From the NCBI GenBank assembly GCA_002862205.1, contig PKCN01000201.1, positions 1 through 46,716 of the forward strand: 46,716 bases of DNA. Direction: 5' to 3'. The DNA comes from Planctomycetaceae bacterium. Its GTDB lineage: Bacteria; Planctomycetota; Planctomycetia; Pirellulales; Pirellulaceae. Shown here piece by piece: positions 7,564-37,885 of this stretch. The notes beneath the pieces were generated by a model that saw nothing but the letters and a program-made list of their open reading frames with translations, was not told the DNA's origin and searched no databases. The translations under genes and the position numbers were made by a program. Each line of letters begins with the position of its first letter. Position 1 is the stretch's first letter.

Positions 7564-8400
7564 TCAATCCGAGTGCCTCAGTCGGGTGATGTCGAGTGTT
7601 TCAGAAGCCACTGAAATGGTTGCCTCGATATCGGGTTGTCCATAGATGGCCGCTCCCGTGTGCACTCGCAGGTTGGCTGCCATTCGAGCGACTCCAGCGT
7701 GGTGGGTGTGGCCGCATAGTACAGTCACCTGGCATCCGGGTCTCTGTTGACTGAATTCCATGAGTGCATTGCCAACTTGTCCTGCCACGAAAAATGGTGC
7801 CCAATTGTCGTCTGTCGTTTTGCCCTCGTACCAGCAGGCCTCCCGAAATGGAGGTGCGTGGGTCAACACGAGTGCCTGCTGGGCATCAGAAGGCAGTTGT
7901 TCCAATTTGGCTTGCAAGCGTTCTGCGGCTGCACTGCCGATTCTTTGAAGCTGGTGTTTGCGGTTGGCTTTGCCGGCTACTTTGAAATCGCCGATGCGTT
8001 CAAAGTCATTCAGTTGAATGGTTGATGTTTCGTAGTTGCCGACTGTCCCATCGGCCCAACCGTCTTCGCCCAAAAGATAGGTTCCTGTTGACACCTGAAG
8101 TGGCGAAAGATTTGTCAGATAATGCAGTTGGGGAGAGTCACGACATGCATGAATTACAGTCTGCCGCGTTGTCTGGAAGGTGCTTTCGTAGAAGTCATGA
8201 TTGCCCAATACAAAGTAAAGGGGCAACCCGCAGCTGCTGACAATACGTCGTAGCTGTCGAACAACATCGTCACCTTCAGAAATATCGCCAGTGATCACCA
8301 AGCCATCAGCGTGCAGCAAGGTGATCTTCTGAATCCACTGTTCCCACGCTGGTGTGGGAACAGAATTCAGATGCAGGTCGGTTGTCCAAACCAGACGCAC
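7564..8400 (-). CDS. Metallophosphoesterase (calcineurin-like)
   Basis: The 278-residue protein has the full calcineurin-like metal-site series: TTDLH (D8, H10), GDISEGDD (D39), GNHD (N67, H68, D69), LTHAPP, and GHTHHAG. No signal peptide is present, so a cytoplasmic phosphoesterase or phosphodiesterase is expected. The substrate cannot be predicted. The GTG start lies only 3 bases after the metK stop, with no clear Shine-Dalgarno site, so it is probably translated by reinitiation after metK. The linkage with S-adenosylmethionine synthesis is positional only. Its 3' end faces pepT. Confidence 0.87.
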   Translation of the reverse strand: MRLVWTTDLHLNSVPTPAWEQWIQKITLLHADGLVITGDISEGDDVVRQLRRIVSSCGLPLYFVLGNHDFYESTFQTTRQTVIHACRDSPQLHYLTNLSPLQVSTGTYLLGEDGWADGTVGNYETSTIQLNDFERIGDFKVAGKANRKHQLQRIGSAAAERLQAKLEQLPSDAQQALVLTHAPPFREACWYEGKTTDDNWAPFFVAGQVGNALMEFSQQRPGCQVTVLCGHTHHAGVARMAANLRVHTGAAIYGQPDIEATISVASETLDITRLRHSD

Positions 8401-8403
8401 AAC

Positions 8404-9585
8404 CTAGGCCGTTGCTGACAGTCCGGCTGCCGCTGCCAATGCTTCGGCCTTGTCAGTCTGTTCCCAAGTGAAACCATCACCTTCGCGACCGAAGTGACCG
8501 CCAGCAGTTGTTTGGCGGAATACGGGGCGTCGCAGTTCGAGGTGCTCGATGATTCCTCTGGGTGTCAGCGGGAAGTGTTCGCGAACCAATTCGCACAAGC
8601 GGACATCATCAATCTTGCCCGTTCCTTCAGAATCGACATGGACACTGACTGGCTCACTGACACCAATCGCATAGGCGAGTTGTACTTCGCACCGTTCGGC
8701 CAAGCCAGCTGCCACGATGTTCTTGGCAACGTAGCGAGCCATGTAAGCCGCGGAGCGATCAACTTTGGTCGAATCCTTGCCGCTGAATGCACCACCACCA
8801 TGACGGCCCCACCCGCCATAGGTGTCGACAATGATTTTTCGACCTGTCAAGCCACAGTCACCATGGGGGCCACCGACGACAAACTTGCCAGTCGGATTGA
8901 TATGATAATTGATATCACCTTTGTCCAGTTCGGCAGGTAGGGAAGGTTTGATTACCTGCTCGGTGATGAACGTCTTGATCTCGTCGTTGGACACATCAGG
9001 GCTGTGCTGTGCGCTGACAACCACTGTGTCGATGCGAACAGGAGTATTGCCTTCGTACTCGACTGTGACTTGACTTTTGTTGTCAGGACGCAGCCAATCC
9101 ACTTCCTTGTTGAACCGTGCCTCAGTGATTCGATTGATGATTCGATGGGAAAGAGCAATCGGTAGTGGCATCAATTCCGGAGTATCTTTGCACGCATAGC
9201 CGAACATCAGTCCTTGATCACCAGCACCAATTTCTTTTCCCGCCGCATCGTCAGAATCAACACCTTGAGCAATGTCAGGGCTTTGTGTGTCGAGCGAAAC
9301 CATCACGGCACAGGTGTCACCGCAGATTCCCATTTGATCGTCGGTGTATCCGACTTCGTTGATGACTTCACGCACGACATCGGAGTAGCTGACTCGGGCG
9401 TTGGTCGAGATTTCACCAGCGATGACTGCCATGCCAGTGGTTACCATCGTTTCGCATGCCACGCGACTGTTGGGATCCTGTTCCAGCAGTGCGTCAAGAA
9501 TTCCATCGGAAATGCGATCCGCCAATTTGTCAGGATGGCCCATGCTGACGGATTCACTAGTAAACAGATATCGAGCGTTGCTCAC
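8404..9585 (-). CDS. metK: S-adenosylmethionine synthase
   Basis: The enzyme makes S-adenosylmethionine from methionine and ATP in the cytoplasm. The signatures are unmistakable: [21 protein letters not shown] at the N-terminus, [12 protein letters not shown] in the middle, and [19 protein letters not shown] for the phosphate-binding region. The length (393 residues) fits the bacterial family. GTG 9585 is preferred over TTG 9600. It gives the family-like start [12 protein letters not shown] and is preceded at about 8 bases by GGAGAA, while TTG 9600 lacks a good ribosome site. No known SAM riboswitch was recognised upstream. It is the first gene of a two-gene unit with a metallophosphoesterase, and is divergent from the VWA gene at 9748. 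Confidence 0.97.
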
Positions 9586-9747
9586 GACGGGATTCTCCAA
9601 GCTCTGCCACCACGGGGGTGGAATTGGTTTCTGAAATTTGTACGGTCATAAATTAGTTGGCAAATGGCCTCCTGAGAAGCGTCCTCATTGAATTGTTTAC
9701 TGACAACAGCGCACTTTTCGAGGAAATGGGGTAGAACAAAGGGTGCC

Positions 9748-27594: not shown

Positions 27595-28638
27595 TCATCC
27601 GCGGGACATCACAAGATTCAAAAATTCCTCTTCGTTGACGACTTGGACAGCACTATTTTTATCACCATTGGCTTGCATACCGCGAGTGTCATCAACAAGG
27701 TTATTCCTTGCAGAAGTATTTTTGGTCACTCCCATGACGAGATAATCGGTCTGCTGGTCGACATTTGCCTGCCAGGTGCCACCGAGTCGTGTGGTCAGAT
27801 TTTCGGCATCACTTTCGCTCATGCAGCGTAATTTTCCGACGAGAGCAATCCGTTTCCCGTGGAGTGGGCGTACAAATTCACCACGAACGAGAATTCGTTG
27901 CAGGTCGATCTCGCATTCCAGTTCGGCCGCAATTGGGACACTTTTCCCACGATCGGCCAATTGATTTGGAAACAGAAAAGGTAATCCCGATGTCCCATTT
28001 TGTGACGTTGGTTTGGAACCGTTGCGAGTCGATCGTTTTCCTGATTTTCCTGAAGGCCCTTGATAGCCCCATGAGCCAGCTTTCCCCCGTTTCAGTTTCA
28101 GACTTTTTTCAAGATGATCCAGCGAAGTAGCTTCACGATCGATACCAGCCGCGATCAAAATCTTGGCACAGGCGATTGAATCTTCTAACGCGTCATGGTG
28201 CTGAAAGCGAATACCAAGCCAGTTGGAAAGCGGTTTCAAGCCGTAACGGCGGTGGTGAGGCCATGTGCGGCGGGCAATTGCCCGAGTGCAGGTAAAGTGT
28301 AATTCGGGGATCGATTGGCCATGGGTGCGTAAGCAGGCCAGTAACACTTTGATGTCAAAGCTGGCGTTGTGTGCTACCAGACAGTCGTCACCAAGTTTAT
28401 CGCAGATGTCAGACCAGATCTCACCGAACGTTGGTTCTTCACGAACTTGAGCTGGTGTGATGCCATGAATCCGAATATTGCTTTTGCTGAAATGAAGGGG
28501 TTGAGGGCGAATCATCCACATGAATTGGTCTACCAACTGACCGTTACGGACAACGACAGCTCCCAATTGGCAGGCGCTATCGGGTTGGTGGCTCGCTGTT
28601 TCGAAGTCGATGGCGGTGAAATCTGCAGCAAAATCCAT
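27595..28638 (-). CDS. DnaQ-type 3'-5' exonuclease with C-terminal BRCT domain
   Basis: The 347-residue protein has an N-terminal DEDDh exonuclease domain: TAIDFETA (D11, E13), VAHNASFD (D95) and HHDALED (H148 and D153 in the H-x4-D pattern). A basic, Ser/Gly-rich linker (KRGKAGSWGYQGPSGKSGKRS) leads to a BRCT domain at about 255-345 (LHGKRIALVGKLRCMSESDAENLTTRLGGTW...DYLVMG). This layout is known for DNA polymerase III epsilon-like exonucleases that act in repair. ATG 28638 gives MDFAADFTAIDFET, which fits the family; ATG 28650 is an alternative. It lies 222 bases after the ligase-associated repair operon on the same strand, so read-through and a shared function are possible. Confidence 0.88.
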   Translation of the reverse strand: MDFAADFTAIDFETASHQPDSACQLGAVVVRNGQLVDQFMWMIRPQPLHFSKSNIRIHGITPAQVREEPTFGEIWSDICDKLGDDCLVAHNASFDIKVLLACLRTHGQSIPELHFTCTRAIARRTWPHHRRYGLKPLSNWLGIRFQHHDALEDSIACAKILIAAGIDREATSLDHLEKSLKLKRGKAGSWGYQGPSGKSGKRSTRNGSKPTSQNGTSGLPFLFPNQLADRGKSVPIAAELECEIDLQRILVRGEFVRPLHGKRIALVGKLRCMSESDAENLTTRLGGTWQANVDQQTDYLVMGVTKNTSARNNLVDDTRGMQANGDKNSAVQVVNEEEFLNLVMSRG

Positions 28639-28860
28639 GATCCTGATCATCGACCTTGATTCGATGATCACTCCTCTTTCTGACTGGTTCGAGTCTCACT
28701 CGCCTCATGGTACGGACTTCCTGCCAACTGTTCAATTAACAGGTCACAGCTGAGCACGCTTGTATTTATTCAAATTTGCAGGTGTCAGCACCCGAAGGCC
28801 GAGATCGCGATGACGCGGGGCACGACATTGCCATTGGCAAATCGTACCGGATTGTGAAGC

Positions 28861-29559
28861 TCACGAGGAAGCACGTTTTGATTTGGGGGATTTGCGGCGT
28901 GGGTAGGAAATGACATTTCCGTCTGCGACCACCCAAACACCATCGTCTCGTGTTGGCCGAATCGTACTGCATCCGGTAAAGTCACCGATCGCTGGCAGAA
29001 TCAAGCGTTTTTTGTGCCACCAGAAGCACGGCAATCTGCCTGGTTGGTCGATCACCGACTTCAAGTGCACAGCCGGGTGAAGGTGACCACATAGCATCAG
29101 TGCAGCGCCACTTGGAAAGTTGTCTGGTTCGTGGCCAACCGCCAGCCCGTCAGCGAATTCACCTGCGGGAATGATTTCAATTTCCCAATCGGTGGGCAAA
29201 GTTCCCAAGGGTCGATCGTGGTTGCCGGGTACCAGTTTGATTTGCAGTGTCGGGTGGTGTTGGCGGAATGCCTGTAGTTGTTCACAAGTCGTTTTCGAAA
29301 GTGAAGACTTTGCGTGAAACATATCGCCAAGGATCACGAGGGTTTTGGGATCGGTCCGCTCTACCATGGTGCCGATGGATCTCAATGTCCCGGTCGTTGA
29401 TCCCTCGGGCACGGGGACATGATGAAATCGAAATGTTGCTTCTTTGCCAAAATGGGTATCAGCAACGAAAAGTGTATGTTGCTGATTCCAGTAAATACCT
29501 TTTTCAGGTAGGAGTTCCAGTTCGTAATTCAAGAGACTAATTTTCACAGCACCATTCAC
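28861..29559 (-). CDS. pdeM: Ligase-associated DNA damage response metallophosphoesterase (PdeM-like)
   Basis: The 232-residue product has the calcineurin-like metal ligands in order: FVADTHFGKEATFR (D34, H36), ILGDMFHAK (D79), PGNHDRPLG (N113, H114, D115), AVGHEPD (H143) and CGHLHPAVH (H159, H161). The VADTHFGKEATFR opening and the genomic position match the family of small phosphoesterases encoded beside ligase-associated helicases. A phosphoesterase acting on damaged or unligatable DNA ends is the natural inference, though the true substrate is not known to me. The GTG start overlaps the helicase stop by four bases (GTGA). It is the last gene of the operon. Confidence 0.9.
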   Translation of the reverse strand: MNGAVKISLLNYELELLPEKGIYWNQQHTLFVADTHFGKEATFRFHHVPVPEGSTTGTLRSIGTMVERTDPKTLVILGDMFHAKSSLSKTTCEQLQAFRQHHPTLQIKLVPGNHDRPLGTLPTDWEIEIIPAGEFADGLAVGHEPDNFPSGAALMLCGHLHPAVHLKSVIDQPGRLPCFWWHKKRLILPAIGDFTGCSTIRPTRDDGVWVVADGNVISYPRRKSPKSKRASS

Positions 29560-32087
29560 TTTTCGGTTTCTGCAGCGGCTGCTTCGAGCTGCATTTGCAT
29601 TCGGGCAATCCGGTCAGCGAGCGTTTCGCTACTGACGCGTTCGCGTAATTTGTCGACCAGCAATGGAAACGCCAGCGGCGTGACCCGGGGTGGTTCTTTG
29701 ATCATGATTTGGCTTTGGTTGATGCGTTCCATCGCTGAGTGCATTCGGGTTGCTTCGAGTTGCTGGTCAAGCACTTCTCGGCGGCTTTGTTCGAGCAACA
29801 GGTTATCGGGATCGTATTGACAGAAAACATCGAAAAAGAGGTTGCTGCTTGCTTGCAGTTGTCTGGCATTCTTGCGAGCACCTGGCAGCCCCTGTTGGAT
29901 CAGTCCCGCGATCCGGGCGACTTGTCTGAATTGTCTCTTGGCCATCTCGGTGCAATTCATGCTTTCAAGAATATCAGCCATCAGATCGTCCGTTGAAAAC
30001 CAGGACCTGGCAGTGTCAGGATCAATCTCTGTCTTTTCGGGTGATTGCAGCACCACGCCATAGTCATTGCACGCCATCGAGAAAGTCGTCTTGCGGTCTC
30101 GGGATATGCGATACGCGATCAAGGCTGCCAGGCCTTCATGGACAAGGCGTCCTTCAAAGGGAAACAGGAAAATCTGGAAACCTGTACGGGTTTTGATTTG
30201 TTCAATCAGCAGTTGGTTTGCCTGTGGAATGATGCTCCATTTTTGTTGAATATCCAGCAGGCCCTTGAGCGCTTTCATTTCACGACCGGTGAGCTTTTGT
30301 TGCGATGCTTCGTGCAGTTTGTGACGGAGTGCTTCGCTCAGTTCACTCGATAACGGCATGCGACCGCCCATCCATCGTGGAACCGTATCGGGGGTTCCCT
30401 TGGATCGCTTTACGTAGGCAACGTTATCACGGACACACACCATCTCGACGAGTCTGCCTGCGAATAGAAATTTCTCTCCGGGTTTTAGTTTTGATAAAAA
30501 TGACTCTTCTGCCGTGCCCAGCGTTTTCCCTTTCATGTATTTCACATGCATCGCCGCATCTGAGACAATGGTGCCGATGTTCATGCGATGGCTGGTTTGA
30601 ATTCGCCGTTGTGTGAGGTGATAAAAATCACCAGTCCGCTCAACTCGCTTGAATTCGGGATAAGCGTCGAGAGAACTACCGCCACGGACGACAAAATCCA
30701 GTACCCACTGCCACTCGATGTCTGTCAGTGATTCATAAGCCTGAGTGGTGCGGACCTCTCGCAACAATTCATCTGAATGAAAGCCACCCCCAATTGCGAT
30801 AGTGACCAGATGTTGAGCAAGCACATCGAGTGGTTTCCTTAGTAGCGGCCGTGCCTCCAGGTGTCCCGCACGAATCGCGTCCTGAGCAGCGGCCAATTCC
30901 ATCAATTCGATCGCATTGGTGGGCACAAACGCGAGCTGACTGGTTGCCTCTGGTTGGTGGCCACTACGACCAGCTCGTTGTAGCAGTCGCGCTGCACCTT
31001 TGGGACTGCCGATCTGAATGACCAAATCGACGGCGGTGTAATCCACGCCCAGATCGAGACTGCTGGTGCAAACAACAGCACGCAGAGCTCCTTCTCGAAG
31101 GCCCTTCTCAACCCATTGCCTGACGCTTGTATCGAGCGATCCATGATGCAAAGCAATTCGACCAGCCCAGTCAGGCCGTTGTTTCAGCAACTGTTGATAC
31201 CAGATTTCGGTTTGTGATCGTGTGTTGGCAAAGACCAGAGTGCTATTGACCGATTCAATTTTCTCAGCGACCTGAGGCACCATCCGTATTCCGATGTGGC
31301 CAGACCATGGAAACGACTCCATGCGTTCTGGAATGATCGACTCAAGATGCAGGCGCTTTTTGCGGTAGCCTTCAATGATCCGTACAGAATCGGTCCCTAC
31401 AGCATTGTCGTTATCTGAATTGGCTGGTTCAACGCCCACCAGAGCCTGCTTGGCTTGTTCCAAATTTCCCAGCGTTGCGGATAAACCCCAGATCCGAAGT
31501 TTTGGATTCAGTTTTTTCAATCGTGACAGGGCCAGTTCTGTCTGGATACCACGTTTTGTGCCCAATAGTTCATGCCACTCATCGACAATCACGCCTTCCA
31601 GTTGCTTGAATTGCTCGAGCAGTTTCTCATGCGTGAGCATGAGTGAGAGGCTTTCAGGAGTGGTGATCAGGGCTGTGGGCAGGCGTTTCAATTGGCGCGC
31701 TTTCGCACTCGCTTTGCTATCTCCTGTTCTTGATTCAAGTTTCCAGGGTAAGCCGATGTGGTCGAGTGGTTGTCGCAAGGATGCTTCGGTGTCTCCCGCT
31801 AATGCTCGCAGTGGAGTAATCCACAGAACGCGCAATCCGGGTGGGCGTTTGGGTTGCCACTTTTGTCGATCCCGATTTTCGCTCAGCCATTTGAGGATGG
31901 GACCCATCCAGACAGCGAGAGTTTTTCCGGTACCGGTTGCGGAGTGAACCAAACCACTCGATCCATCACGATAGGCTCGCCACGTGGATCGCTGGAATCG
32001 AAACGGCTTCCAACCGATCGACTGGAAAAAACGATCAACTGTTTTTGAGGGGGTCTCAGGTTTGGCTTGCTGAACGGTATCCATCAT
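29556..32087 (-). CDS. Ligase-associated DEXH-box helicase (Lhr-like)
   Basis: The 843-residue superfamily 2 helicase has a Q-motif-like FRFQRSTW, Walker A SATGTGKT (49-56), the DEXH box VDEWHELLG (169-172), motif III GLSATLGN, and C-terminal motifs including LDLGVDYTAVD and QRAGRSGHQ. The VDEWHELLGTKRG sequence and the long C-terminal region (winged-helix and DUF-type domains) are those of the bacterial Lhr-like, ligase-associated group. Lhr-type enzymes unwind DNA or RNA:DNA hybrids with 3'-5' polarity. ATG 32087 overlaps the ligase stop by four bases (ATGATG/TGA), implying coupled translation. It sits between ligase and pdeM, as is usual for this gene set. Confidence 0.94.
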   Translation of the reverse strand: MMDTVQQAKPETPSKTVDRFFQSIGWKPFRFQRSTWRAYRDGSSGLVHSATGTGKTLAVWMGPILKWLSENRDRQKWQPKRPPGLRVLWITPLRALAGDTEASLRQPLDHIGLPWKLESRTGDSKASAKARQLKRLPTALITTPESLSLMLTHEKLLEQFKQLEGVIVDEWHELLGTKRGIQTELALSRLKKLNPKLRIWGLSATLGNLEQAKQALVGVEPANSDNDNAVGTDSVRIIEGYRKKRLHLESIIPERMESFPWSGHIGIRMVPQVAEKIESVNSTLVFANTRSQTEIWYQQLLKQRPDWAGRIALHHGSLDTSVRQWVEKGLREGALRAVVCTSSLDLGVDYTAVDLVIQIGSPKGAARLLQRAGRSGHQPEATSQLAFVPTNAIELMELAAAQDAIRAGHLEARPLLRKPLDVLAQHLVTIAIGGGFHSDELLREVRTTQAYESLTDIEWQWVLDFVVRGGSSLDAYPEFKRVERTGDFYHLTQRRIQTSHRMNIGTIVSDAAMHVKYMKGKTLGTAEESFLSKLKPGEKFLFAGRLVEMVCVRDNVAYVKRSKGTPDTVPRWMGGRMPLSSELSEALRHKLHEASQQKLTGREMKALKGLLDIQQKWSIIPQANQLLIEQIKTRTGFQIFLFPFEGRLVHEGLAALIAYRISRDRKTTFSMACNDYGVVLQSPEKTEIDPDTARSWFSTDDLMADILESMNCTEMAKRQFRQVARIAGLIQQGLPGARKNARQLQASSNLFFDVFCQYDPDNLLLEQSRREVLDQQLEATRMHSAMERINQSQIMIKEPPRVTPLAFPLLVDKLRERVSSETLADRIARMQMQLEAAAAETEK

Positions 32088-33700
32088 GGGGTATCACCGG
32101 AAGATGATTTCGGCAGCAGGTCCAGAACGTCATCAAGAGTGTTTGCGTCTTTTGCTCCTTTGTCGTGTCTCCAACGGGTGATGCGGGGAAAACGTGTTGC
32201 GATGCCACTCTTGTGCCGCGTGCTCGCTTGAAGTCCCTCGAAAGCGAGTTCCATCACCAGTTCCGGCTGCACGCTTCGAACTGGTCCAAACGCTTCTGTC
32301 GTGTTTTGCCGAACAAATCGATCAACCTTGCGGAGTTCGGAGTTACTGAGGCCACTGTAGGCTTTTGCGAACGGTACAAGTTGATCTCCTTTCCAAACGG
32401 CAAACGTGTAGTCACTGAACAGATTGGATCGTTTTCCATGACCTTTTTGCGCATAAATGAGAACGGCATCGATGGTGTAGGGTTCCACTTTCCACTTCCA
32501 CCATGTGCCGCGGACCCTTCCCACGTCATAGGCAGCATCGACACGTTTCAGCATCAGGCCTTCGGAGTGACGTTCCCGACTTTGTGTTCTTGTTTTGGCC
32601 CAGTCTTCCCAACACTCTGCAGGGATCAGGTCTGTGATTTTCAGTTGAGGGTGTTGCACTTGTGACATCAACTGCTGAAGTCTGTTCCGGCGTTCCTGCC
32701 ATGGAAGAGGTCGTAGGTCTTTTTCGTCCTGTTCGAGTAGGTCAAAAGCATGAAATACAACTGGCACCTCAAGCAACAGTTTGCGGCCAATGTTCTTTCG
32801 ATTGATCCGGCGCTGCAACTGTGCGAAGGGTAGCACGATTCCGTCAGCTTGGGTGGCCAGGATCTCGCCATCGAGCACAGTTCCTGAAGGCAAGAGGGCT
32901 GCAGCAGCTTCGACTTCAGGCCAACGATTCTCCATCAGTTCTTCGCCACGTGACCAGACAAAGGTTTGTGAGTTCCGACGGATCAATTGACCACGTATTC
33001 CGTCCCACTTCCATTCGGCAGCGAAGTCGGAAAAGTTTCCCAATTCATTTGGATTGCTGTCACGGTCGATCGCGTGCGCGAGACAGAATGGATAGGGTTG
33101 GCTGGCAACGGCATCCCCAATATCAGGGTTGGATAATCGCAGGAACGATTCTGGTGTGGGAGTCCAGGTTCCCATCAGGCGGTGGGCGATCACTTCAGCA
33201 GAAATACCGCTGTGTTCAGCCAGAGCACGGGTGACCAGTCGCTTGCTCACACCCACTCGGAAAGCACCTGTGATCAGTTTTAGGATGACAAACCTGACGT
33301 GGGCGGGATTTTGACGCCAGATGTCGGTCACGATCTTGCGTTGTGCTTCTTCATCCATGCCGCGAAGGACTTGCAAACGATCTTCGACCCATTCGCGCAA
33401 GGATCCAGTGGTTTCCAATTGCTGTTCCGGAACAACCAGTGATATTGTCTCGGCCAGATCTCCGACCGAGCTGTACGATTCTTCGAATAGCCAAGGTGGT
33501 ATGTCAGCTTCTTCAGCAGCCCATTGGCGTAACAGTTTGGTTGGAACGAGGCGTCTGAGTTTTTGACCGGACAGGAAGTGGATCGCCCACGCGGCATCAG
33601 CGGCGTCAGCCCGGCCAAAATAATCGACCATCGCCGAGATTTTGGCATTCGTCCGTGTCGTAGAATCCAGCAACTGATAAAGCTCAGCGAATAGCTTCAT
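32084..33700 (-). CDS. ATP-dependent DNA ligase (cisplatin/ligase-associated type)
   Basis: The 538-residue protein has an N-terminal DNA-binding domain (about 1-200) and a nucleotidyltransferase core. The AMP-accepting lysine is in EWKWDGIRG (K231). Further motifs are VLDGEILA (motif III), EGLMLKR (motif IV) and TWWKWKVEP (motif V), followed by an OB-fold region. It seals nicks using ATP, unlike the replicative NAD-dependent LigA. ATG 33700 is preferred over 33766: it overlaps the nuclease stop by four bases (ATGA), is preceded by GGAG at about 8 bases, and gives the usual MKLFAELYQLLD start. It is the central gene of the repair operon. Confidence 0.95.
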   Translation of the reverse strand: MKLFAELYQLLDSTTRTNAKISAMVDYFGRADAADAAWAIHFLSGQKLRRLVPTKLLRQWAAEEADIPPWLFEESYSSVGDLAETISLVVPEQQLETTGSLREWVEDRLQVLRGMDEEAQRKIVTDIWRQNPAHVRFVILKLITGAFRVGVSKRLVTRALAEHSGISAEVIAHRLMGTWTPTPESFLRLSNPDIGDAVASQPYPFCLAHAIDRDSNPNELGNFSDFAAEWKWDGIRGQLIRRNSQTFVWSRGEELMENRWPEVEAAAALLPSGTVLDGEILATQADGIVLPFAQLQRRINRKNIGRKLLLEVPVVFHAFDLLEQDEKDLRPLPWQERRNRLQQLMSQVQHPQLKITDLIPAECWEDWAKTRTQSRERHSEGLMLKRVDAAYDVGRVRGTWWKWKVEPYTIDAVLIYAQKGHGKRSNLFSDYTFAVWKGDQLVPFAKAYSGLSNSELRKVDRFVRQNTTEAFGPVRSVQPELVMELAFEGLQASTRHKSGIATRFPRITRWRHDKGAKDANTLDDVLDLLPKSSSGDTP

Positions 33701-34734
33701 TCTGATTGCTCCTCGCCATTGGTATCTGCTTCGCGGTCCTCTTGGTCGGATGCGGATCGTTGCCAACGGTCAAGCGAAATCGCGTTACGCCCCTTGTCTT
33801 TTAAATAGCGTGCAACAACAGCAGTGTAGCCATGGGTGACCCACACGGTTTCAGGATCACAGGCATCGACAGCAGCAAGTAAAGATGGCCAGTCAACATG
33901 ATCGCTTAGTACGAATCCCCGGTCGAAGGACCGTCGCCGCCTTGGGCCACGGATTGCCATCCAGCCGCTCGCCATGGCTGTGCTGGTCTTGCCGAAACGT
34001 TTCAGCCACGGGGTACCGTGGGCGCTGGGAACTGCCACTACCATAGCACCAGCCCAACGTTGTGATTTTTCAGCCTTGGCAGTATGCATGGTGGGCGGCA
34101 AATGGACTCCCGTTTGACGATAGGCTTCGTTGCCTTTCTCAACCGCGCCATGGCAGTAAATGGGGCCAATCTCGGGATCAAGTCCGGCGATGATTCGTTG
34201 ACTCTTGCCTACGGCATAGCCGTAAAGAACACTGCACTGTTCTCGCTCGCGATTATCCCGCCACCATTGATTGATTGCTGCAAAGACTGATTGTTGGTCT
34301 GGCCAACGATAGACGGGTAATCCGAAGGTCGATTCAGTGACCAGAAGATGGCAACGTAACGGCTGCCAGCTTTGGCACGTTGCGTCACTTCCCAGTTTGT
34401 AATCGCCGGTAACGACTTCAACCCGTCCCCGATATTCAAGCCTGACCTGTGCGGAGCCGAGCATATGGCCCGCCGGGTGAAAACTGACTGCGACACCACC
34501 GATACTGATTGTTTGACCGTAATCAGCAAATTGGAATTCGGCTTCGGGGCTCATCCGCATTCGCAGTAGATGCTCACTCGGGCTGGCAGCAAGGTACCGT
34601 CGACTGCCCCAGCGGGCGTGGTCAGTATGTGCATGGGTTACCACAGCACGATCCACCGGGCGATGTGGGTCAATGTGGAAATCACCCTGAGGACAGTAGA
34701 AACCCCGATTTGTTTGCTGCAGCAGTTCGCTCAC
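33697..34734 (-). CDS. Ligase-associated metallo-beta-lactamase-fold exonuclease
   Basis: The 345-residue protein has the metallo-beta-lactamase signature THAHTDHARWGS (H34, H36, D38, H39), then FHPAGHMLGSAQV, VTGDYKLG, and late motifs SAHGTPW and VLSDHVDW. These are typical of the 'mRNA 3'-end processing factor-like' or Snm1-related nucleases found with ligase and helicase. GTG 34734 is chosen over ATG 34752 because GAGG lies 7 bases upstream and the start overlaps the UdgX stop by four bases (GTGA), like its neighbours. The role is probably processing of DNA ends or crosslinks before ligation, which is inference. Confidence 0.9.
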   Translation of the reverse strand: MSELLQQTNRGFYCPQGDFHIDPHRPVDRAVVTHAHTDHARWGSRRYLAASPSEHLLRMRMSPEAEFQFADYGQTISIGGVAVSFHPAGHMLGSAQVRLEYRGRVEVVTGDYKLGSDATCQSWQPLRCHLLVTESTFGLPVYRWPDQQSVFAAINQWWRDNREREQCSVLYGYAVGKSQRIIAGLDPEIGPIYCHGAVEKGNEAYRQTGVHLPPTMHTAKAEKSQRWAGAMVVAVPSAHGTPWLKRFGKTSTAMASGWMAIRGPRRRRSFDRGFVLSDHVDWPSLLAAVDACDPETVWVTHGYTAVVARYLKDKGRNAISLDRWQRSASDQEDREADTNGEEQSE

Positions 34735-36167
34735 TGGACAACCTCGGCACATCGTTTGAGATCCGTTACCAGTTGGTTCACCATCTCACGTTTCCGGTTC
34801 TCGTCAGGCATTCGCAGGATGGCCGCGGGATGCCATGTGGCAATGGTCTGTTCGCTCCACTGGGTTTTTTGGATATGACCTCTCTGTTGGCTGAGACGGA
34901 AGTCTCGTCCCAGCAATGCCTGAGCTGCTGTGGCACCCAGACAGATTACTGTCTGGGGCTTCAACGCCGCGATTTCTGATTCCAACCATGGTCGGCAGGC
35001 GTAGATTTCCCGTGAGTCTGGTTTTTTGTGCAGCCGCCGTTTGCCACGTCGCTCGAACTTGAAGTGCTTGACCACATTCGTGAGATACACCGCTTGTCTG
35101 TCGATACCTGCGTCACGTAGTGATGCGTTGAGGAGTTCTCCGGCAGGTCCAACAAAGGGTTCGCCAGCGATGTCTTCCCGCTCTCCCGGTTGTTCGCCTA
35201 CCAAAACCATCCGCGCATCCTCAGGTCCGACACCGAATACGGATTGAGTCGCATCGTGGCACAGGTCACACGCTTGGCATCCAACAACGGCCTGTCGTAA
35301 CGATTCAAGATCCTGTTGGGCCGGAAGATAGTGCATTCCCGTTTCTGAAAAACCTTCGTGGTTTTTGATCATTTCCGTGACTCGTGCGGGAGCATCACGA
35401 ATCAAGTCATCGATCAGTGTGGCTTCGGGCAACGTGGGCCAGTGTCTTACCGGCATCTCACGTTTCATCATGTCCACCTTGATCCGCGCCGGATTGAAAA
35501 TGGATGCGTAGTAGGTCTTCCACAACCCCTCCAAAGCATCTGCATTTGGCGCTTCACTTGCCGGCAGTCCGGGCCCATAGGTCAACTGATGTTGATCCCA
35601 ATGGGCCGATTCATGGGAAGTCAAAATGGTCCATGACATGCCCTTGAATCTGCGTTGAAAGAATGGCGCAGCCAACCGCATGATGAAGTGGTCTGGTCGA
35701 TGCCACGCGATGTAGGATTCCGACTGATCATCGGTTTCGATTTTCCGAAAACGCACAAAAGCTTTCATCTTGTGTACATCACGGGTTACTGCTTTTCTCA
35801 TTCGCTGAAGCAGAAGAACATCATCATCCGTTGTCATTTCAAGCAAACGCCGCTCACCATGTACCAATCGCCACAGAGTTTGGTAAAGCAGTTGCCAACG
35901 AGTGGGGCTGCGATGACAGGCGACTTGACGTGCTAGTTCAAGAAATGGTGATGGCACCGTGAATCGGGACTGCGTATCTTGAACCGAAGCATTTGGGCGC
36001 TCATCCTGCGCCGTTTCGCCTGTTTTTTTCTGATGAGGTTGATCAAAGAGCCCGGGTTGGTTGTCCTCGGGTGACCAATGAACGTCTGCGGGAGAGATTT
36101 CATTGGACAAGAGGGCACGGGCTTCCGCCCGCCAATCGTCAAAACAGGTCACATGGATGAATCGCAT
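34731..36167 (-). CDS. udgX: DUF4130-UdgX fusion, uracil-DNA-binding glycosylase-like protein
   Basis: The 478-residue protein has two parts. Residues 1 to about 270 match DUF4130, a domain encoded beside a radical SAM partner. Residues about 285-478 form a family-4-like uracil-DNA glycosylase. It has CQAC (C297, C300) and C391 as iron-sulfur ligands, GEQPGEREDIAGEPFVGPAG (325-343), TNVVKHFKF (H368 where family 4 usually has a cysteine), and WHPAAILR. The diagnostic UdgX loop is present as KRRLH (376-380). In mycobacterial UdgX the matching histidine attaches covalently to the abasic sugar after uracil removal, and H380 is the equivalent. It starts 6 bases after the radical SAM stop. Confidence 0.92.
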   Translation of the reverse strand: MRFIHVTCFDDWRAEARALLSNEISPADVHWSPEDNQPGLFDQPHQKKTGETAQDERPNASVQDTQSRFTVPSPFLELARQVACHRSPTRWQLLYQTLWRLVHGERRLLEMTTDDDVLLLQRMRKAVTRDVHKMKAFVRFRKIETDDQSESYIAWHRPDHFIMRLAAPFFQRRFKGMSWTILTSHESAHWDQHQLTYGPGLPASEAPNADALEGLWKTYYASIFNPARIKVDMMKREMPVRHWPTLPEATLIDDLIRDAPARVTEMIKNHEGFSETGMHYLPAQQDLESLRQAVVGCQACDLCHDATQSVFGVGPEDARMVLVGEQPGEREDIAGEPFVGPAGELLNASLRDAGIDRQAVYLTNVVKHFKFERRGKRRLHKKPDSREIYACRPWLESEIAALKPQTVICLGATAAQALLGRDFRLSQQRGHIQKTQWSEQTIATWHPAAILRMPDENRKREMVNQLVTDLKRCAEVVQ

Positions 36168-36173
36168 GACCGA

Positions 36174-37427
36174 TCAAACCTCACCCGAAGTTGCCGATTG
36201 CATGGCATCAAATAACATCAATTGTTGCGTTGCTGGCCGGGTTTTCTGAACAAGATCCAGCATGTCAAGATTTCTCAACGCCGGGTTGTGATCACTGGTG
36301 AGGACAAAGTACTTGGCACGATTCCAAGCGACCTTCAGTTTTTTAAGATCGCAGGTCTGGATGTGCTTGTGCCTTCGAATGTTCAAGAGTCGCTTCACAC
36401 TCCTCGCTCCGATGCCGGGAATCCTGAGCAACTGCTCGCGGCAGGCGGAATTGACATCGATGGGAAAGCTATGTCGATTGGCAAGAGCCCAGGCAAGTTT
36501 TGGATCAACGTCGAGGGAGAGGTTTTGATCGGCTTCGGTAACCAACTCTGACGCTTCAAATCCATAGAACCTCAGCAGCCAATCTGCTTGATACAAGCGA
36601 TGCTCTCGAACGAGTGGTGGTGATTGTCCCGGCAGGCGGGCATCGGCGTGTGGAATTGGGCTGTAGGCAGAGTAATACACACGACGCAGTTTCTGTCCCT
36701 CATAAAGTTCAGATGCCGTTTGCAAAATGGTACTGTCGGGCGTGGCTGTTGCTCCCACAATCATTTGAGTGCTTTGACCGGCAGGAGCGAAGCGTGGGCT
36801 CTTGAACCCACGCTTACTGTCCTCCCGGGATTCACTGATCTTTTCTGATATCCCTTGCATCGCGTTGACGATGATCGGTTTCTTTTTCTCGGGTGCCAGT
36901 TGGACGAGATCGTTTTCTGTTGGCAATTCAATATTGACGCTTAGACGATCCGCCCACTGCCCGGCTTCCCCGATCAGGTCCTCGTTCGCATTGGGAATGG
37001 TTTTCAGATGGATATACCCACCGTATTGATGCTCAGTTCGAAGAACTCTTGCCACTTCGGTGAGTTGTTCCATTGTGTAGTCTGGGTTCTGGATAATTCC
37101 AGAGCTCAAAAATAAGCCTTCGATGTAGTTCCGCTTGTAAAAATCCAGCGTCAGCGAGACGACTTCGGGGACGGTGAAACGTGCACGGGGTGTGTCGCTG
37201 GAGATGCGATTGACACAGTATTGACAATCGTAAATGCAGAAATTGGTGAGTAGGATTTTCAGCAATGAAATGCAGCGACCGTCGGGGGTGTAGCTATGGC
37301 AAATCCCCATCCCTTCGGTACTGCCAATCGTGCTGCCGGTCCGGGTTGTCTTGGAGCCACTACTGGCGCAGGAAGCATCATACTTCGCAGCATCTGCCAG
37401 AATGGCTAATTTGTCTTGGACATCCAT
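36174..37427 (-). CDS. Putative DNA modification/repair radical SAM protein with helix-hairpin-helix
   Basis: The 417-residue protein has the radical SAM cluster motif CIYDCQYC (C64, C68, C71). A TIM-barrel-type core follows, with segments FLSSGIIQNPDYTMEQ, GYIHLKTIPN and SVNIELPTEND. A C-terminal helix-hairpin-helix (LLRIPGIGARSVKRLL at 333-348) gives DNA binding. This matches the family always paired with DUF4130. The [4Fe-4S]/SAM site and HhH together suggest radical chemistry on a DNA base; spore photoproduct lyase is a precedent, but the substrate here is unknown. ATG 37427 gives MDVQDKLAILADAAKYDAS, the usual N-terminus. It is the first gene of the six-gene operon, so the promoter should lie in 37428-37600. 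Confidence 0.92.
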   Translation of the reverse strand: MDVQDKLAILADAAKYDASCASSGSKTTRTGSTIGSTEGMGICHSYTPDGRCISLLKILLTNFCIYDCQYCVNRISSDTPRARFTVPEVVSLTLDFYKRNYIEGLFLSSGIIQNPDYTMEQLTEVARVLRTEHQYGGYIHLKTIPNANEDLIGEAGQWADRLSVNIELPTENDLVQLAPEKKKPIIVNAMQGISEKISESREDSKRGFKSPRFAPAGQSTQMIVGATATPDSTILQTASELYEGQKLRRVYYSAYSPIPHADARLPGQSPPLVREHRLYQADWLLRFYGFEASELVTEADQNLSLDVDPKLAWALANRHSFPIDVNSACREQLLRIPGIGARSVKRLLNIRRHKHIQTCDLKKLKVAWNRAKYFVLTSDHNPALRNLDMLDLVQKTRPATQQLMLFDAMQSATSGEV

Positions 37428-37885
37428 GAACAGAACCCAACATGGAAAACGGTGAATGAGGTCGACCAGCTTGACCCGCCTGACGCGATCGTATTGCGAC
37501 GAAGGGGACTAATCATTCCCCACCGGGGTGCCCATCCGCTTTTTCAGATCCATGCTGGTTTTCGGCCTTTGAGGTTGAAATTCGGGTGGTTCGCAGATGT
37601 TCACTGGATACCATGCAAGTACTGATCCAACACTAGTTTAGAAGTGTGTCCACTCCCGGCGATGGCGGCATGATGTGGGGGCAACAAGTTACCCGGGCCA
37701 GGGCAAGGGGTTGCATTGGGTAAACATCAATGGTGGCGCAAAAATCGTAGTTTTCCGCAACGGTCTGGTTGTGGTTGAACCGACTACAATGTCTCTTGGT
37801 CTGGTCATATTTTGATAGCCACGCATGCTCCTCTGGGGTCGTCGCGATTTTTGTTTGTCATAGTTAGTTGAGAGGATCTTCATTG
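37428..37885. other. 458-base divergent intergenic region
   Basis: This space separates the start of the minus-strand repair operon from the plus-strand PQQ-propeller gene and should contain both promoters. The only structures seen are short: CCCC-ACC-GGGG near 37517-37527 and GGTT...AACC near 37768-37782. No LexA-type or other recognised damage-response operator was identified. Short open frames here have no convincing protein character. Confidence 0.4.

What the first reader, a model, noticed from the sequence alone, without database searches (positions are those of the whole stretch)
28861..37427. Six-gene DNA-repair operon with chained 4-base overlaps: radical SAM, DUF4130-UdgX, MBL nuclease, ATP ligase, Lhr-like helicase, PdeM
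Seen: once starts are corrected, four consecutive junctions are 4-base stop/start overlaps (36167 gene to 34734 GTGA, 33700 ATGA, 32087 ATGA, 29559 GTGA), and the radical SAM gene lies 6 bases upstream of UdgX. Known: ligase, helicase, nuclease and phosphoesterase form the 'ligase-associated' set, and radical SAM plus DUF4130 form another pair. Inference: here the two sets are fused into one translational unit. That suggests a single pathway in which a radical enzyme or UdgX recognises a lesion, the nuclease and phosphoesterase clean the ends, the helicase opens DNA, and the ligase seals. The pathway as a whole appears biochemically undescribed.
Basis: partly seen in the sequence, partly recalled or inferred. 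Interest (0 to 1): 0.78.

Follow-up and report, generated by a model that had tools for sequence, protein, structure and literature searches.

The report
Conserved six-gene DNA repair operon
In a group of planctomycete bacteria, two separate sets of DNA-repair genes (one that seems to find and capture damaged bases, one that seems to cut out and reseal DNA) have been joined into a single six-gene unit, which suggests they do one job together and makes that idea testable.

Summary
Six genes (37427-28861, minus strand) match, above curated cut-offs, a radical SAM protein (rSAM), DUF4130-UdgX, and the ligase-associated Exo, Lig, Lhr-Core and PdeM. Four junctions are 4-base overlaps, one a 6-base gap. 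The order recurs in 14 other genomes of the family; the 15 span six genera. Gene trees fit one joining event. The window's flanking genes recur only in its sister species, other flanks in at most 4 of 14 loci, so the six genes are the conserved unit. The overlap chain is less conserved: only Exo>Lig is general (13 of 15). The sets are often apart but co-occur: ligase in 27 of 39 rSAM genomes against 19 of 120 others in the family sample, 18 of 20 against 61 of 198 in the class sample, 10 of 14 against 48 of 208 in Alphaproteobacteria. Linkage in other arrangements recurs. Both sets are known. Not found in the papers searched: the fusion, and a sliding-clamp-binding-type motif conserved in the rSAM tail (QLMLF here). 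One shared pathway is plausible but unproven.

The parts
36174..37427 (-). Radical SAM protein (417 aa), TIGR03916 rSAM_link_UDG; CX3CX2C at C64/C68/C71; helix-hairpin-helix match below cut-off at aa 307-348; beta-clamp-binding-type motif QLMLF at aa 402-406 (36224-36210) in a low-confidence tail
34731..36167 (-). DUF4130-UdgX fusion (478 aa), TIGR03915 + TIGR03914; UdgX motifs GEQPG, KRRLH (His380 = M. smegmatis H109 by motif), HPAAILR; linker peptide QPGLF at aa 37-41
33697..34734 (-). Exo: ligase-associated exonuclease family TIGR04122 (345 aa); HxHxDH present; GTG start overlaps the UdgX stop by 4 bases
32084..33700 (-). Lig: ATP-dependent DNA ligase (538 aa), TIGR04120 / NF006701; KWDG motif; 4-base overlap with Exo
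29556..32087 (-). Lhr-Core helicase (843 aa), TIGR04121 with Pfam WH_Lhr and DEAD_assoc; Walker A and DEWH box; 4-base overlap with Lig
28861..29559 (-). PdeM: ligase-associated calcineurin-like phosphoesterase (232 aa), TIGR04123; GDxxH, GNHD, GHxHP motifs; 4-base overlap with Lhr-Core
37428..37867 (.). Intergenic region between the operon and the divergent PQQ-propeller gene; the operon promoter presumably lies here. No sigma-70-like site was reported in it, and no motif shared with relatives was seen by eye in the 150 bases before the start

Best explanation
A six-gene repair operon, formed probably once within this family (taken to be Pirellulaceae) by joining two known modules: a lesion-handling module (rSAM, DUF4130-UdgX) and a strand-processing module (Exo, Lig, Lhr-Core, PdeM). 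Proposed mechanism: (1) the radical SAM enzyme is tethered to the replication sliding clamp by its C-terminal QLxLF motif and, with DUF4130, acts on a damaged pyrimidine (substrate unknown); (2) UdgX excises uracil or a uracil-like base and stays covalently bound to the abasic site through His380, shielding it; (3) Lhr-Core opens the DNA around the capped site, PdeM nicks single-stranded DNA and Exo degrades the strand carrying the adduct; (4) after gap filling by a host polymerase, Lig seals. Shown by sequence: gene identity, order, conservation, co-occurrence, catalytic motifs, clamp-type motif. Inferred: every biochemical step in this organism, the order of steps, and that the modules act on one lesion.
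For: Identity of all six. Collinear block in 15 of 159 genomes of the family, six genera; the window's flanking genes recur only in the sister species and other flanking ORFs in at most 4 of 14 loci. rSAM and Lig trees each put the 15 fused loci in one clade (support 90/85 and 83/81), fitting one fusion and joint descent. Linkage in other arrangements: divergent in G487 (all six), G281 (all six), G229 (no PdeM seen), G210 and G341 (Exo and Lig only); same strand with the modules in reverse order in G171; within 9.4 kb on a Phaeobacter plasmid. Expected linkage within 10 kb among genomes with both, under random placement, is 0.07 of 27 (observed 16) and 0.05 of 18 (observed 7). Co-occurrence, Fisher: family 27/39 v 19/120, p=1e-9; class 18/20 v 61/198, p=2.8e-7; phylum 5/6 v 5/141, p=2.7e-6 (5/12 v 5/135, p=3e-4 if six strong but below-cut-off rSAM matches are counted); one-sided, Alphaproteobacteria 10/14 v 48/208, p=3e-4; Gammaproteobacteria 3/3 v 3/181 (2/2 without the chosen centre, p=6e-4). 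The rSAM tail holds a clamp-motif-like peptide in 41 of 44 representatives at 70% identity by a wide pattern (shuffle maximum 8) and 29 of 44 by a strict one (shuffle maximum 3); published definition from PMC11139829 (passages read). The UdgX His380 position is His in 97 of 101. Precedents for an Lhr helicase working with a pyrimidine glycosylase: E. [quoted passage not shown] M. smegmatis lhr-nei2 operon, Nei2 a 5-hydroxyuracil glycosylase needed for psoralen resistance (PMC11323726, abstract and passages).
Against: 12 of 39 rSAM-bearing genomes of the family lack the ligase, so the rSAM-UdgX module does not need the other. Outside the fused clade most genomes with both have them apart. UdgX has lost the Gln of motif A and the His380 position in G154 and G236, and His380 in G171, while DUF4130 is kept; G171 is one of the linked cases, so the capture step cannot be the general reason for linkage. 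G463 and G396 each pair an rSAM and a ligase from different clades, so the modules can be exchanged separately. Co-occurrence tests ignore phylogeny and genome size. The wide clamp pattern is loose: it also occurs in residues 1-370 of 35 of 130 rSAM (strict: 1 of 130). The linker peptide of DUF4130 has Gln first in only 37 of 101. No expression, binding or activity data.
Confidence: 0.42

Rival explanations
1. Co-regulation only: two independent repair systems that are needed under the same stress were placed under one promoter. They share expression, not substrates.
For: Both modules live alone in many genomes; the overlap chain is mostly not conserved; the collinear fusion was seen in one clade only.
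Against: Repeated linkage in different arrangements and the tendency of rSAM carriers to be ligase carriers (18/20, 27/39, 10/14, 3/3) are more than shared expression needs, although co-selection for the same stress could give this.
Confidence: 0.38
2. Historical accident or repair island: the genes were brought together once (perhaps by horizontal transfer) and have stayed together by inertia; co-occurrence reflects large aerobic genomes that collect accessory repair genes.
For: One fusion event can explain all collinear cases; rSAM-UdgX without ligase (G360, G414, G439) and a genome with the two sets about 60 kb apart (G479) look like later loss and splitting.
Against: Flanks differ while the six genes stay in order; other linkages sit elsewhere on the trees; catalytic motifs of Exo, Lig, Lhr-Core and PdeM are intact in 15 of 15.
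Confidence: 0.15
3. Direct-reversal reading: the radical SAM enzyme is a SplB-like photoproduct lyase and the operon is a UV/crosslink response in which UdgX and the ligase set handle leftovers. [quoted passage not shown]
For: Published annotation (PMC3765255, passage); radical SAM match just below the Pfam cut-off and a CX3CX2C motif.
Against: Closest folds listed were HydE, MiaB, PFL-activating enzyme and viperin with TMq at most 0.41; no spore photoproduct lyase appeared among the 50 rows shown of 71 with E <= 0.001; no solved structure matched the rSAM by sequence below E 0.1.
Confidence: 0.05

Closest known systems
Ligase-associated repair cluster of Pseudomonas putida (MPE, Lig, Exo, Lhr-Core; Ejaz and Shuman)
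   Same: Four matching protein families in one run of genes; PMC10140301 (passage) describes a LigB/Lhr/phosphodiesterase/MBL operon whose biological role is not known. That PdeM corresponds to MPE is recalled, not tested; the primary papers are not held
   Different: Here it follows rSAM and DUF4130-UdgX in the same run; none of the passages read mention that
rSAM - DUF4130 - UdgX gene pair (TIGR03914/03915/03916; PMC3765255 legend)
   Same: Same pair in the same order; 78 of 80 named rSAM loci from several phyla had a DUF4130-UdgX match, 60 of them over at least 380 aa
   Different: Elsewhere usually without the ligase set nearby: of 80 loci only N. pilleata (L151) and a Planctomycetaceae MAG (L153, Lhr-Core only) had a strong match to a ligase-set gene in the locus; weaker matches in L191 and L200
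M. smegmatis UdgX
   Same: Domain aligns at 46-48% identity, TMt about 0.9; GEQPG, R-loop KRRLH with the crosslinking His, HPA motif
   Different: Fused to an N-terminal DUF4130 domain for which no solved relative was found by sequence
E. coli Lhr and mycobacterial Lhr-Nei2
   Same: Lhr helicase core coupled to an enzyme acting on uracil or 5-hydroxyuracil (PMC10953399, PMC11323726; abstracts and passages)
   Different: There the glycosylase is in the same protein or is Nei2; here Lhr is core-only and the candidate partner is UdgX, three genes upstream

Membership tests
Ligase-associated four-gene repair cluster | Four families TIGR04120, 04121, 04122, 04123 above curated cut-off | tested here: met
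Ligase-associated four-gene repair cluster | Genes contiguous on one strand | tested here: met
Ligase-associated four-gene repair cluster | Catalytic motifs (KxDG; Walker A and DExH; HxHxDH; GDxxH, GNHD, GHxHP; motif meanings recalled) | tested here: met
   15 of 15 collinear clusters, window included
Ligase-associated four-gene repair cluster | Helicase, nuclease and ligase activities | not testable with these tools
   needs purified proteins
rSAM-DUF4130-UdgX pair | TIGR03916 next to TIGR03915+TIGR03914 | tested here: met
UdgX | Motif A GEQPG, R-loop KRRIH with His, motif B HP(S) (definition from PMC10359453 abstract) | tested here: met
   window GEQPG, KRRLH, HPAAILR (Ala for Ser in motif B):
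UdgX | Covalent bond to the abasic site after uracil excision | not testable with these tools
   biochemical
Beta-clamp client proteins | Clamp-binding motif Q-aliphatic-x-[L/M]-[F/L] or its six-residue form, often in a disordered segment (definition from PMC11139829) | tested here: met
   window QLMLF 402-406, model confidence below 50 at 401-415; definition met in 86 of 130 tails (phi = LIVM), shuffle maximum 8
Beta-clamp client proteins | Binding to the clamp | not testable with these tools
   needs binding assay
Spore photoproduct lyase (SplB) | Closest fold/sequence relative is SPL | tested here: inconclusive
   SPL not among the 50 rows shown; no sequence match below E 0.1
Anti-phage defence system | Members of a PADLOC system | tested here: not met
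   no hit for five proteins; the helicase hits 39 models, the shown ones mostly helicases of several systems, no complete system

The most novel reading that the evidence does not exclude
A clamp-coupled capture-and-excise pathway: the covalent UdgX-DNA adduct is a programmed intermediate, made at the replication clamp after a radical SAM/DUF4130 reaction on a damaged pyrimidine, and the long-orphan ligase-associated set exists, at least in these bacteria, to cut out that protein-capped strand and reseal it. This would give a first substrate to two gene sets whose biological roles are unknown.
Probability: 0.2. Interest if true: 0.85.

Novelty: new variant of a known kind. Interest (0 to 1): 0.57.

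Why it matters
The physiological role of UdgX (PMC10359453, passage) and of the bacterial LigB-Lhr cluster (PMC10140301, passage) are each described as unknown, and DUF4130 was found in one paper only. A conserved fusion of the two sets, their co-occurrence in several classes, and a sliding-clamp-type motif on the radical SAM enzyme give a concrete, testable link. Caulobacter vibrioides, a control genome, matched TIGR03916 and TIGR04120 over the cut-off, so a standard laboratory organism may allow the genetics.

Tried and rejected
Anti-phage defence: no PADLOC match except helicase models. A seventh gene: the DnaQ/BRCT exonuclease 189 bases downstream (27595-28671) matched, among the loci held, only the sister species G263, so it was left out. 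A shared promoter or LexA-type box: the 150 bases upstream of rSAM in 19 loci, read by eye, showed nothing shared; promoter and terminator scans found no more than shuffles. Repair genes in the gaps of the loosely linked loci: the large ORFs there looked unrelated to repair by eye (a sulfatase-like, a trehalose-hydrolase-like and others; not searched). DUF4130 fold: the 50 Foldseek rows shown were UdgX and other uracil-glycosylase-fold matches and the second aligner was not available, so its fold stays unassigned. A first R-loop count (KRRxH) suggested that 3 of 15 fused loci had lost the loop; alignment showed K-x-R-L-H with the His kept in 15 of 15. Loss of Exo at N. pilleata: no Exo found in L151 or around its second ligase in L358; Exo elsewhere in that genome was not searched.

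Full report
WHAT IS THERE. The six ORFs are at the coordinates given, all on the minus strand. NCBIfam assigns all six above curated cut-offs: rSAM_link_UDG, SAM_7_link_chp plus UDG_fam_dom, Xnuc_lig_assoc, DNA_lig_bact, DEXH_lig_assoc, P_estr_lig_assc. Pfam agrees for four, has Radical_SAM just below its cut-off, and finds nothing for Exo. The rSAM stop and UdgX start are 6 bases apart and the next four junctions are 4-base overlaps. The Exo GTG start is supported by an ATG at the same overlap in the sister species. The window is the whole of one contig in a 7.77 Mb, 451-contig assembly.

IS IT MORE THAN CHANCE. In 159 genomes of the same family, 39 hold the rSAM (38 over the cut-off) and 46 the ligase (45 over); 27 hold both; in 16 of these 27 the two are within 10 kb. 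All 16 were read. Fifteen, the window included, have the order rSAM, UdgX, Exo, Lig, Lhr-Core, PdeM on one strand, in six genera; one (G487) has all six with the modules divergent. In G449 the rSAM is split between two frames. ORFs of 150 aa or more flanking 14 of the blocks are shared by at most 4 loci, and the window's own three flanking genes were found only in the sister species G263. So the unit that has been kept is these six genes. Overlap lengths are not conserved except Exo>Lig (13 of 15), so the full chain of overlaps is special to the window and G472.

HISTORY. In the rSAM tree (56 rows, midpoint root) the 15 fused loci fall in one clade of 20 (90/85), with G396, G360, G479 and Stieleria, where the sets are not joined or could not be seen joined (contig end), and N. 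pilleata, which has five of the six genes. In the ligase tree (45 rows) they fall in one clade of 18 (83/81) with G463 and G479 unlinked and N. pilleata. Support is moderate. The simplest reading is one fusion, followed by losses and at least one split. G463 has a fused-type ligase but an rSAM from another clade, and G396 the reverse, so modules have also been exchanged or replaced separately. Other linkages (G487; G210 and G341; G281 and G229; G171) lie elsewhere on the trees.

CO-OCCURRENCE. Class sample: 20 of 218 genomes have rSAM; 18 of these have the ligase over its cut-off, against 61 of 198 others (p=2.8e-7). Family: 27 of 39 against 19 of 120 (p=1e-9). Phylum sample with Exo instead, both over the cut-off: 5 of 6 against 5 of 141 (p=2.7e-6); six more genomes have strong rSAM matches below the cut-off (E 1e-44 to 1e-96) and no Exo over the cut-off, and with them it is 5 of 12 against 5 of 135 (p=3e-4). 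Alphaproteobacteria: 10 of 14 against 48 of 208 (one-sided p=3e-4; 10 of 13 without the chosen centre, p=1e-4). Gammaproteobacteria: 3 of 3 against 3 of 181; the centre had been chosen as having the genes, without it 2 of 2 (one-sided p=6e-4). Among 50 named rSAM genomes, chosen by me from 80, 41 have the ligase over its cut-off, with no background for that set. The tests treat genomes as independent and do not correct for genome size; the samples of phylum, class and family share genomes and must not be added. Within 10 kb: 7 of 18 in the class sample, 16 of 27 in the family, 1 of 5 in the phylum sample, 0 of 10 in Alpha- and 0 of 3 in Gammaproteobacteria (sets on different contigs of drafts count as apart). 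On plasmids, 58 Phaeobacter records match rSAM and 58 match Exo; in the one read (NC_018291) lig-exo and rSAM-udgX lie within 9.4 kb with other genes between. A Comamonas plasmid has the four ligase-set genes without rSAM in the 20 kb read.

A NEW FEATURE: CLAMP MOTIF. The C-terminal tail of rSAM carries a peptide of the sliding-clamp-binding type. A strict pattern Q[LMIV]x[LM]F is in 78 of 130 tails (shuffles: mean 0.5, maximum 2); a wider pattern in 125 (shuffles: mean 6.9, maximum 13). With one row per 70% identity cluster: 29 and 41 of 44 (shuffle maxima 3 and 8). As a control, in residues 1-370 the strict pattern occurs in 1 of 130 and the wide one in 35, so the wide one is loose. The definition printed in PMC11139829 (passages read) is met in 86 of 130 with phi as L, I, V or M, and in 96 with Ala allowed (shuffle maxima 8 and 10); the tails of the other five proteins meet it in 0-2 sequences each. 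Some tails end in QMALW or QLGFGF-like forms that the printed definition does not cover. In the window it is QLMLF at 402-406, in a stretch modelled with confidence below 50. DUF4130 carries a weaker, similar peptide next to a low-confidence linker: Leu in 101 of 101, Phe in 89 of 101, Gln first in 37 of 101 but in 13 of 15 fused loci. Binding is not shown.

ACTIVE SITES. Window UdgX keeps GEQPG, KRRLH and HPAAILR; the position of H109 is His in 97 of 101 aligned UdgX and in 15 of 15 fused loci. The four rows without it are L131 (G171), L142 and L154 (one genome, G154, a Paludisphaera soli record) and L144 (G236); G155 has a changed motif A and was too short for the alignment. Their DUF4130 is kept, so DUF4130 can act without capture. 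Of ten DUF4130 positions looked at, Asp114, His132, Arg139, Tyr219, Arg228, Trp243 and Glu248 are the same in 101 of 101, as expected of an active or nucleic-acid-binding site. No solved relative of DUF4130 or of the rSAM was found by sequence. The rSAM model matches general radical SAM folds (HydE, MiaB, PFL-activating enzyme, viperin; TMq at most 0.41).

LITERATURE. The four-gene LigB/Lhr/phosphodiesterase/MBL operon is known, with unknown role (PMC10140301, passage citing Ejaz and Shuman 2018; that paper is not held). UdgX makes a covalent bond to the abasic site and its precise physiological role 'remains largely unknown' (PMC10359453, abstract and passages). E. [quoted passage not shown] Mycobacterial lhr-nei2 is an operon; deleting lhr or nei2 sensitises to psoralen-UVA and Nei2 is a 5-hydroxyuracil glycosylase, not a uracil glycosylase (PMC11323726, abstract and passages). 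DUF4130 appears in one paper of the library (PMC3765255, passages). No paper held both UdgX and radical SAM, the four words for the ligase set together, or clamp-binding motif and radical SAM. The library holds only open-licence papers, so absence there is weak evidence of novelty.

MECHANISM AND VERDICT. I think most likely that the two modules serve one process: capture of a uracil-like lesion near the replication clamp, then excision and resealing by the ligase-associated enzymes. The parallel with E. coli Lhr and Lhr-Nei2 makes a link between Lhr helicases and damaged pyrimidines the best-founded part. The closest rival, co-regulation without shared substrates, cannot be excluded. Observation confirmed; interpretation partly supported; a new variant of a known kind.

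Noticed in passing
window 36210-36224 (rSAM aa 402-406) and rSAM tails of relatives, L060-L327: Conserved sliding-clamp-binding-type peptide at the C-terminus of TIGR03916 radical SAM proteins of several phyla; not found in the papers searched.
   Followed up: yes
window 36045-36059 (DUF4130-UdgX aa 37-41): Weaker clamp-like peptide xxxLF in the linker of DUF4130; the Gln-first form is concentrated in the fused loci (13 of 15).
   Followed up: partly
window 29556-32087 (Lhr-Core, about aa 639): An internal QIFLF in the helicase fits the strict clamp pattern; 6 of 37 Lhr-Core sequences have such a match. Probably part of the fold.
   Followed up: no
window 27595-28671, minus strand: RNase T/DnaQ-family exonuclease with a BRCT domain 189 bases downstream of PdeM; found there only in the sister species. 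E. coli lhr is reported co-transcribed with RNase T (PMC8301817 passage).
   Followed up: partly
L131, L142, L144, L145 (G171, G154, G236, G155): UdgX motifs decayed (motif A changed in all four, crosslinking His lost in the three that could be aligned) while the fused DUF4130 domain and rSAM are kept.
   Followed up: partly
L151 and L358 (Neorhodopirellula pilleata): Five of the six genes in order with Exo missing, and a second ligase copy elsewhere without Exo nearby.
   Followed up: partly
L301 (G449): Radical SAM gene split between two reading frames inside an otherwise complete six-gene cluster; frameshift or assembly error.
   Followed up: no
window 8404-9600 and 7564-8400: ORFs that look by eye like S-adenosylmethionine synthetase and, beside it, another calcineurin-type phosphoesterase, about 27 kb from the radical SAM gene; probably unrelated.
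   Followed up: no
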